Shown here: positions 6,679-13,204 of the stretch, in pieces
How the letters are laid out: each line of letters begins with the position of its first letter
Numbering within the stretch: position 1 is the stretch's first letter
NCBI GenBank assembly: GCA_018268595.1
Contig: JAFDWH010000026.1
Coordinates: 186,001-250,000, forward strand
Direction of reading: 5' to 3'
DNA from: Actinomycetota bacterium
Lineage (GTDB): Bacteria; Actinomycetota; Thermoleophilia; Solirubrobacterales; Solirubrobacteraceae
Length of the DNA: 64,000 nt
Translations under genes and position numbers: made by a program
The notes under the pieces: model-generated
Seen by the model: the letters and a program-made list of their open reading frames with translations, nothing else
Database searches by the model: none
Told to the model about the DNA's origin: nothing

Positions 6679-6806
6679 CCAACGCCGAATCCATGGCCCG
6701 AAGCCGTGGACCGGGGGACCCACAAGTCCCTGGGGCTAATCCCGCGGTGCATCCGCGAGAGGCGCCGGCTCTTTCCGCGCCAGCCCGTCAGCTAACCCCG
6801 GAGGCC
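6679..6806 (+). promoter_or_regulatory. ydaO/yuaA-type cyclic di-AMP riboswitch 1
   Basis: The leader of the NlpC/P60 gene carries the conserved blocks of the ydaO aptamer in order: GCCGAATCC, then GGGGGACCCAC at 6713-6723, GGGGCTAAT near 6732-6740 and AGCCCGTCAGCTAACCCC at 6782-6799. The last block is identical over 18 bases to the second riboswitch at 11.8 kb. In this class c-di-AMP binding usually turns the downstream gene off, and actinobacterial members commonly control cell-wall hydrolases, which fits here. Only about 6 bases separate the aptamer from the AGAGGAAG ribosome site and no separate terminator hairpin is obvious. Boundaries are approximate. Confidence 0.9.
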
Positions 6807-6823
6807 GACGAAAGAGGAAGCTG

Positions 6824-11705: not shown

Positions 11706-11793
11706 GCCGATCGCGCGGGAGTATGACAGCGGGGCGGGGAAAAGCCCAGCGTCTTGCCGGTTTTCCACGGCATGCGGCAGCCGGGCGTGATAG

Positions 11794-11924
11794 GCTGCCG
11801 CGCGCCGAGTCTCTCACGTGCGCGTGGGAGAGCGGGGGACCCACAGAGTCCTCCTCAGGGGCGAATCGCGGTCTGATGACCGCGTAGCGCATCGCGCGAG
11901 CCCGTCAGCTAACCCCGCAGGCAC
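11794..11924 (+). promoter_or_regulatory. ydaO/yuaA-type cyclic di-AMP riboswitch 2
   Basis: The same ordered blocks as riboswitch 1 are present: GCCGAGTCTC, GGGGGACCCAC at 11834-11844, GGGGCGAAT at 11858-11866 and AGCCCGTCAGCTAACCCC at 11899-11916. TGCC near 11796 can pair with GGCA near 11920 to close P1. It precedes the M23 peptidase gene by about 75 bases. c-di-AMP should repress read-through. A TAGGCT at 11791-11796 could be the -10 box, but no good -35 was found. Confidence 0.9.
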
Positions 11925-11956
11925 CGCAGATGGGCTCCATAACAGTGAACCTGAGG

Positions 11957-11986
11957 TTGACCCTTTGGAGGGCGCGAGCCTAGACT
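11957..11986 (+). promoter_or_regulatory. Internal promoter downstream of riboswitch 2
   Basis: TTGACC at 11957-11962 and TAGACT at 11981-11986 have an 18-base spacer, close to the sigma-A consensus. The start point would fall 6-8 bases before or at the ATG at 11999, giving a nearly leaderless mRNA that lacks the riboswitch. An overlapping hairpin, GGCGCGAG/CTCGCGCGCC at 11971-11994, could instead be the riboswitch expression platform. Confidence 0.5.
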
Positions 11987-11998
11987 CGCGCGCCGCGC

Positions 11999-13204
11999 AT
12001 GCGCCTTCGCAGCATCCTGCTCCTCACCCTGCTCGCCCCGATCGCCCTCTGGGCGGTGCTTCCGCTCGTCTCGAGCGCGAGCCCCGAGGCGACCGTCAGC
12101 TCGCTGCAGAGCCGCATCGACCACAAGCAGCAGAAGCTCGACCAGGCCCACGGGCGCGCGCGCGTGCTGACGACCGACATCTCGGGCCTGACGCAGAGAA
12201 TCGACCGGCTGCAAAGCACGATCACGACGCTCCAGCGGCGCGAGAGCGCGATCCAGGCGGACCTCGACGTCAAGCAGGCGCAGCTCGGCCGCACGCAGGA
12301 CGAGCTGCGGCGGGTGCGCGCACGGCTCGTGCAACTGCGTGCCCGGCTCGAGCGCGCGAGAGCGACCCTCGCCGACCGGCTCGTCGAGCTCTACAAGTCC
12401 GACCAGCCGGACATCGTCAGCGTCGTCCTCGACGCGAACGGCTTCGCCGACCTGCTCGAGAACGGCGCGTACCTGCAGCGGATCGGCCAGCAGGACAGGG
12501 CGATCATCACCGCGGTGCGGGACGCCAAGGCCGAGATGGCGGCCGCCGCCAGACGCCTCGGCACGCTCGAGCAGCGCCAGCAGCGCATCACCACCGAGAT
12601 CGCCGACCGGCGCAACGCCGTCGCGCACGTGCGCGTCGAGGTCCAGGGCAAGCGCGACGCGATCGACCGCGTGCGCCACAGCAAGCAGGCGGTGCTGAGC
12701 TCCGTCCGCGACCACGCCGACAAGCTCGACGAGGACATCAAGGCGCTGCAGTCGCAGCAGGCGAAGATCGAGGCCCGCATCCGCGCCGCGCAGGGCGGCA
12801 GCTCGATCCCGGCCGGCCCGATCAGAGGCGGCGGGCGCTTCATCTGGCCCGTCAATGGCCCGATCACCTCGCCCTTCTGCGAGCGGCGCGCGTGGGAGGC
12901 GTGCCACCCGGGCATCGACATCGGCGTGCCGTCCGGGACGCCGATCCGCGCCGCCGGCAGCGGCAACGTCGTGATCGCGGGCTGGGTCAGCGGCTACGGC
13001 AACTACACGTGCATCGACCACGGCGGCGGGATCTCCACCTGCTACGGCCACCAGTCGTCGATCCAGGTCAGCGTCGGCCAGCACGTGACGCAGGGCCAGG
13101 TGATCGGCCTGTCCGGCTGCACCGGCCTCTGCTTCGGCCCCCACCTCCACTTCGAGGTGCGCATCAACGGGGCCGTCACGAACCCGGTGAACTACCTCGG
13201 CTGA
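11999..13204 (+). CDS. Secreted M23 peptidase with coiled-coil domain (EnvC/NlpD-like)
   Basis: 401 residues. A signal peptide (about 1-27) is followed by a long coiled coil (about 30-265) and a C-terminal LytM/M23 domain (about 285-400). The zinc ligands H303 and D307 (HPGID) and the HLH at 382-384 are intact, so it should be an active peptidoglycan endopeptidase. The M23 domain carries three closely spaced cysteine pairs, suggesting disulfides. The start is ATG 11999; the only GGAGG lies about 27 bases upstream, so leaderless translation from the internal promoter is likely. c-di-AMP riboswitch 2 precedes it. Confidence 0.85.
   Translation: MRLRSILLLTLLAPIALWAVLPLVSSASPEATVSSLQSRIDHKQQKLDQAHGRARVLTTDISGLTQRIDRLQSTITTLQRRESAIQADLDVKQAQLGRTQDELRRVRARLVQLRARLERARATLADRLVELYKSDQPDIVSVVLDANGFADLLENGAYLQRIGQQDRAIITAVRDAKAEMAAAARRLGTLEQRQQRITTEIADRRNAVAHVRVEVQGKRDAIDRVRHSKQAVLSSVRDHADKLDEDIKALQSQQAKIEARIRAAQGGSSIPAGPIRGGGRFIWPVNGPITSPFCERRAWEACHPGIDIGVPSGTPIRAAGSGNVVIAGWVSGYGNYTCIDHGGGISTCYGHQSSIQVSVGQHVTQGQVIGLSGCTGLCFGPHLHFEVRINGAVTNPVNYLG

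What the first reader, a model, noticed from the sequence alone, without database searches (positions are those of the whole stretch)
11794..12001. Second promoter may bypass c-di-AMP riboswitch 2
TTGACC-N18-TAGACT at 11957-11986 lies after the aptamer and 12 bases before the M23 ATG. It would yield a leaderless mRNA without the riboswitch, giving a c-di-AMP-insensitive basal level. The same bases can fold as GGCGCGAG/CTCGCGCGCC, so promoter and expression platform may be the same DNA.
Basis: partly seen in the sequence, partly recalled or inferred. Interest (0 to 1): 0.6.

Follow-up and report, generated by a model that had tools for sequence, protein, structure and literature searches.

The report
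Second promoter downstream of c-di-AMP riboswitch
A cell-wall-cutting enzyme gene in a soil actinobacterium seems to have two start signals for making its RNA: one that includes a c-di-AMP sensor and one, old and conserved in its relatives, that lies after the sensor and skips it.

Summary
The promoter-like site is real and, by conservation, very probably a working promoter. TTGACC-N18-TAGACT (11957-11986) is the only TTGAC-N17-19-TAnnnT site in 64 kb (0.05 expected). Among relatives of the M23 gene in the family, 59 of 73 have a TAnnnT box 4-16 nt before the start codon (mode 10 nt) against 1.9% of control segments. Two genus mates have no aptamer but keep the promoter. So this promoter (P2) is the gene's old, riboswitch-independent promoter; the P1-plus-aptamer unit lies in front of it. 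Eight of 10 M23 genes with an aptamer have this tandem layout; 0 of 36 other c-di-AMP riboswitch loci do. The hairpin/shared expression platform idea fails. "Leaderless" should read "nearly leaderless". No transcript data exist here. Two-promoter RNA switches and riboswitch-controlled uORFs are known in Mycobacterium tuberculosis, so this is a new variant of a known kind.

The parts
11791..11796 (+). P1 -10 box TAGGCT with TG one base upstream (11788-11789): promoter of the riboswitch transcript
   Evidence: TAnnnT just 5' of the aptamer's first stem in 45 of 46 c-di-AMP aptamer loci, control 22 of 820 windows; no good -35 seen
11793..11938 (+). c-di-AMP (ydaO/yuaA) riboswitch aptamer, RF00379; first stem from about 11803 to 11923
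   Evidence: cmscan 62.8 bits, E 3.4e-12
11930..11983 (+). possible 17-codon upstream reading frame (ATG1 to TAG), in frame with the M23 gene; an AGG at 11919-11921, inside the aptamer's 3' end, is 8 nt before ATG1
   Evidence: sequence; frames of the relatives; translation not shown
11937..11943 (+). CCATAAC box, 13 nt upstream of the -35, conserved at M23 promoters of many genera
   Evidence: 19 of 76 relatives, 0 of 912 control windows; alignment; single exact extended match in the genome
11945..11961 (+). near-palindrome GTGAACCTGAGGTTGAC overlapping the -35; possible operator
   Evidence: seen rows L038, L042 (one base different) and L043; degenerate in the other genera
11957..11962 (+). 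P2 -35 box TTGACC
   Evidence: TTG at spacing 18 in 15 of 59 and 20 in 12 of 59 relatives with a start-proximal -10
11981..11986 (+). P2 -10 box TAGACT; predicted RNA start about 11993-11995
   Evidence: 59 of 73 relatives have TAnnnT 4-16 nt before the start codon; start position inferred from the 5-7 nt spacing measured in S. lividans
   Evidence: z -1.33 in the window, not conserved among 15 loci
11999..13204 (+). M23 peptidoglycan peptidase with coiled coil, 401 aa (ATG2)
   Evidence: PF01551 E 9.1e-33, residues 303-396

Best explanation
The M23 cell-wall peptidase gene is served by two promoters in series. P1 (-10 at 11791-11796) starts RNA at the first bases of the c-di-AMP aptamer, so its mRNA is under riboswitch control. 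P2 (11957-11986) starts RNA a few bases before the M23 ATG, giving a nearly leaderless mRNA without the aptamer, blind to c-di-AMP at the RNA level. P2 is the gene's old promoter in this bacterial family; the P1-aptamer unit is placed before it in some lineages and has been lost in others. On the P1 mRNA the riboswitch most likely acts on translation at ATG1 (11930), close to the aptamer; in this species ATG1 opens a short frame that stops inside the P2 -10 box, 15 nt before the M23 ATG, so M23 on the long mRNA is probably reached by re-initiation. Shown: sequences, conservation, absence of the aptamer with P2 kept. Inferred: promoter activity, start sites, direction of c-di-AMP control (off, as reported for related bacteria), use of ATG1.
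For: Only such site in 64 kb, 0.05 expected. Start-proximal TAnnnT in 59 of 73 relatives, control 1.9% of 1387 upstream 22-nt segments and 0.09% of 2336 coding 18-nt segments; gap peaks sharply at 10 nt (32 of 59) and TTG spacing at 18 and 20. In the genus, L039 and L041 have no aptamer even at E<=1 but keep TTG-N18-TAGACT and TTG-N18-TAGAGT; L039 still shows the P1 box and the first part of the aptamer, so the aptamer was probably deleted and P2 remained. Spacer bases are much less conserved than the two boxes. 8 of 10 aptamer-bearing M23 genes, in three genus groups, have P2-like boxes between aptamer and ATG. P1 box in 45 of 46 aptamer loci. A diadenylate cyclase domain is in the genome.
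Against: No transcript data. P1 lacks a clear -35. The P2 -10 matches the E. coli consensus in only 4 of 6. L045, a second M23 copy in G067, has no such box. In L142 (genus group g5) ATG1 is lost, so the ATG1 route is not general; the 17-codon frame may be a relic. The three g14 loci have weaker P2 boxes (17-nt spacer, TAGCCT or TAGCTT). The intact aptamer argues that P1 still matters, so P2 is not the whole story.
Confidence: 0.8

Rival explanations
1. The site is not a promoter; the bases 11971-11994 are the riboswitch's hairpin expression platform, and the promoter-like boxes are incidental.
For: A 7-bp stem is present in the window; it would sit just before the M23 ATG.
Against: Stem absent or different in the relatives; energies within 2 sd of shuffles in all 15 loci; no terminator-like site; boxes kept where the aptamer is gone.
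Confidence: 0.06
2. P2 is the only promoter that matters; P1 and the aptamer are decaying remains.
For: Aptamer absent in two of six genus members and eroded in L124; ATG1 lost in L142 and cut off by a stop in the window.
Against: The window's aptamer scores 62.8 bits with its conserved core intact, and four genus members keep it.
Confidence: 0.12
3. P2 is a regulated promoter (repressor or activator at CCATAAC and the near-palindrome), so the gene has two separately controlled inputs rather than a constant base level. This is a refinement of the best explanation, not an exclusive rival.
For: CCATAAC-type box in 19 of 76 relatives, 0 of 912 controls; palindrome overlaps the -35 in three genus members.
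Against: The palindrome is not conserved outside three rows; no regulator identified; only one exact extended match in the genome.
Confidence: 0.35

Closest known systems
Mycobacterium tuberculosis rpfB leader (PMC6009663, passages read)
   Same: Cell-wall hydrolase gene with two promoters P1 and P2, both TAnnnT, and an RNA switch on the P1 transcript
   Different: Not a c-di-AMP aptamer; P2 lies within the switch region; terminator-based; promoters there were tested
M. tuberculosis ppe2 B12 riboswitch with uORF (PMC11260477, abstract and section 22 read)
   Same: Riboswitch-controlled short frame whose translation feeds the downstream gene by termination-reinitiation
   Different: Stop and start overlap there (AUGA); here they are 13-20 nt apart; ligand differs; no second promoter described in what I read
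Sinorhizobium meliloti metA SAM-II riboswitch with AUG1 and AUG2 (PMC9373788, abstract read)
   Same: Aptamer next to AUG1, real start 74 nt downstream at AUG2
   Different: Terminator between the two starts, no second promoter named in the abstract
c-di-AMP riboswitches of Streptomyces rpfA and Corynebacterium nlpC (PMC9960051, PMC13104608, passages read)
   Same: Same aptamer family before cell-wall hydrolase genes; off-switch
   Different: In the passages read, one riboswitch transcript and no aptamer-skipping promoter

Membership tests
c-di-AMP riboswitch (RF00379) | Covariance model match over the gathering score | tested here: met
   62.8 vs 38 bits
c-di-AMP riboswitch (RF00379) | Binds c-di-AMP and changes expression | not testable with these tools
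   needs in-line probing and reporters; a DAC domain is in the genome
Actinobacterial housekeeping promoter | TAnnnT -10 and nTGACn -35 at 15-19 nt | tested here: met
   TTGACC-18-TAGACT; consensus from PMC8079986 section 12
Actinobacterial housekeeping promoter | Mapped RNA 5' end 4-9 nt after the -10 | not testable with these tools
   no RNA data for this organism
Leaderless gene | RNA start at the start codon | tested here: inconclusive
   gap of 12 nt here, mode 10 in relatives, predicts a leader of 2-6 nt
Two-promoter RNA-switch leader (rpfB type) | Second promoter downstream of or in the switch, same gene | tested here: met
   sequence and conservation only
Riboswitch-uORF reinitiation (ppe2 type) | uORF stop overlaps the downstream start | tested here: not met
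   15 nt between TAG and ATG in the window; 13-20 nt in the other three genus members
Riboswitch-uORF reinitiation (ppe2 type) | uORF is translated and needed | not testable with these tools
   needs ribosome profiling or reporters

The most novel reading that the evidence does not exclude
The -10 box of the riboswitch-skipping promoter also holds the stop codon of a riboswitch-controlled leader peptide: on the long mRNA c-di-AMP decides whether ribosomes enter at ATG1, end at the TAG of the -10 box and re-start at the M23 ATG, while the same DNA bases launch a c-di-AMP-blind short mRNA. One six-base element would join two layers of control of a cell-wall hydrolase.
Probability: 0.2. Interest if true: 0.65.

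Novelty: new variant of a known kind. Interest (0 to 1): 0.42.

Why it matters
Riboswitch annotation usually assumes that a gene behind an aptamer is under its control. Here comparative evidence says that an aptamer-free mRNA is probably also made, so a change in c-di-AMP would leave a base level of the hydrolase. The six genus members, with and without the aptamer but all with P2, are a natural set for measuring what the riboswitch adds.

Tried and rejected
Hairpin as shared expression platform: folded the region between spacer and ATG in 15 loci; window z -1.33, all between -1.76 and 1.68; rejected. Pairing of CTCGCGCG (before the ATG) with CGCGCGAG in the aptamer: read by eye only; long in the window and L040, short in L042 and L043; the bases are part of the -10 flank also where there is no aptamer, so not pursued. 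CCATAAC element as a genome-wide regulon motif: one exact and one 3-mismatch match in the genome, control 0. The uORF as a conserved peptide: its shared residues lie in the promoter DNA, which is conserved also without an aptamer; in the four genus loci one of the three frames is full of stops and the other two are mostly open, so an open frame is weak evidence. Tree direction (gain or loss): aptamer presence needs at least 7 changes on the tree of 76 proteins; gain and loss cannot be told apart by such counts. The recalled idea that scr3097 of Streptomyces lies next to the rpfA riboswitch was wrong: PMC13104608 describes it as antisense to the 3' UTR.

Rows dropped: of the places listed, those that were partial or weak (below about 330 bits, or cut by a contig end) were not extracted; 77 gene starts were, L045 among them. 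L177 was cut by its contig end and dropped; L151, L173, L183 had no start codon near the expected place and were left out of the 73. The 19 rows were chosen by eye for having the boxes (18 of them the CATAA box; L041 and L142 were added for the genus and the aptamer), so that alignment does not test their presence; searches do. In one search the printed heading says -16 but the window used was -24 to +2. In one search L039 was printed at a wrong offset; one search has it right. The 36 other aptamer loci are the best-scoring ones plus the genome's own, not a random draw; for 7 of them the script found no long frame start and only the promoter scan counts.

Full report
What is there. At 11793-11938 is a good RF00379 c-di-AMP aptamer, followed by an M23 peptidase gene, 11999-13204. 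In the 64 kb window this is the only TTGAC-N17-19-TAnnnT; 0.05 are expected in shuffles.

Is it a promoter? I searched the M23 protein in 101 genomes of the family: 79 have a match at E 1e-30. I took 77 gene starts; 73 could be tested. 59 of 73 have TAnnnT ending 4-16 nt before the start codon; controls give 1.9% of 1387 upstream segments (22 nt) and 0.09% of 2336 coding segments (18 nt). The gap is sharply centred: 32 of 59 at exactly 10 nt, and TTG stands 18 nt (15 of 59) or 20 nt (12 of 59) upstream of the -10, hardly elsewhere except at 26 nt (9 of 59). This is what a promoter tied to its start codon looks like. In Streptomyces lividans the -10 ends 5-7 nt before the RNA start in 88.7% of cases (PMC8079986 section 12), so the RNA should start a few nt before the ATG: nearly leaderless.

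Is it independent of the riboswitch? In the genus, six members hold the first copy of the gene. Four have the aptamer (L038 the window, L040, L042, L043), two have not (L039, L041: nothing at E up to 1). All six have TTG-N18-TAGACT or TAGAGT 10-12 nt before the ATG. L039 still carries the P1 box and the first part of the aptamer, then jumps to the P2 region; its sister L040 (100/91 on the tree) has the whole aptamer. So the aptamer was probably removed there and P2 left. A second M23 copy in G067 (L045) has neither.

How common is the tandem? Ten of the 76 M23 genes in the tree have an aptamer just upstream. Eight of them have P2-like boxes between aptamer and start: four in g1, L142 in g5 (TTGACC-18-TAAACT), and L135, L140, L141 in g14 (17-nt spacer, weaker boxes). 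L132 and L150 in g24 have not. In six relatives (L074, L075, L076, L079, L080, L082) the gene's ATG follows the aptamer closely and I saw no second promoter (by eye). In 36 other c-di-AMP riboswitch loci, mostly with a GAAAGAG stretch before the start, no P2-like promoter lies within 260 nt after the aptamer. The layout is thus a feature of this gene, not of these riboswitches in general.

P1. A TAnnnT box lies just before the first aptamer stem in 45 of 46 aptamer loci, controls 22 of 820. In the window it is TAGGCT with TG one base before it; no clear -35 is seen.

The hairpin. GGCGCGAG/CTCGCGCGCC is there, but its energy is 1.3 sd from shuffles and among 15 loci no common stem appears. Spacer bases carry 0.27 to 0.50 bits against 0.82 to 1.14 for the -35 and 1.25 to 1.54 for the -10 (rows chosen for the boxes). 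I reject the shared platform.

A short frame. ATG 11930-11932 lies 8 nt after an AGG that is part of the aptamer's closing region, a place where ligand binding could hide it. It opens 17 codons that end at TAG 11981-11983, the first three bases of the P2 -10 box, 15 nt before the M23 ATG and in the same frame. In L040 and L043 the frame from the corresponding ATG ends at the same TAG; in L042 at a TGA six bases earlier. In g14 the corresponding ATG gives instead an in-frame extension of M23. In L142 there is no such ATG. I read this as the old riboswitch-controlled start, now upstream of P2. Re-initiation from a riboswitch-controlled uORF is documented for M. tuberculosis ppe2 (PMC11260477 section 22), and an Mbox controls a uORF with Rho-dependent termination (PMC12810186 abstract). 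Whether it happens here is inference.

Upstream of P2. A CCATAAC-type box 13 nt before the -35 is found in 19 of 76 relatives, 0 of 912 controls, in many genera and with or without aptamer. The extended block has one exact match in the genome. P2 may therefore be regulated, and the words 'basal' and 'c-di-AMP-insensitive' go beyond the evidence.

Known parallels. M. tuberculosis rpfB, also a cell-wall hydrolase, has two promoters and an RNA switch (PMC6009663, passages). A promoter that would make a transcript lacking a riboswitch was proposed for P. acnes nrdDG (PMC3848588, passages). My searches of the held library showed no report of such a promoter behind a c-di-AMP riboswitch; I read listings and the passages named here, and most subscription papers are not held.

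Verdict. It is a neat, testable regulatory layout of moderate interest.

Noticed in passing
window 11937-11943; rows: CCATAAC box conserved upstream of M23 promoters in many genera, with and without aptamer; binding protein unknown.
   Followed up: partly
window 11945-11961: Near-palindrome GTGAACCTGAGGTTGAC overlapping the -35, kept (up to one base) in L042 and L043; possible operator.
   Followed up: no
L119, L120, L123, L128, L131, L134, L137, L138: M23 relatives without the CCATAAC box tend to have TTGCAG or a near form exactly 20 nt before the -10; spacing unusual for a -35, possibly another control site.
   Followed up: partly
L124, start of the M23 gene: Remains of an aptamer 5' half, including GGGGGACCCA, directly before the M23 start: a riboswitch apparently caught in decay.
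   Followed up: no
window 6685-6821 and gene from about 6823: First c-di-AMP aptamer, with P1 boxes (TTGACA, TAGTAT) and GAAAGAGG before a TTG start of an NlpC-like gene (name by eye, no family search); no second promoter.
   Followed up: partly
L135, L140, L141: ATG after the aptamer and ATG after P2 are in one frame, so two protein lengths could be made from the two promoters.
   Followed up: no
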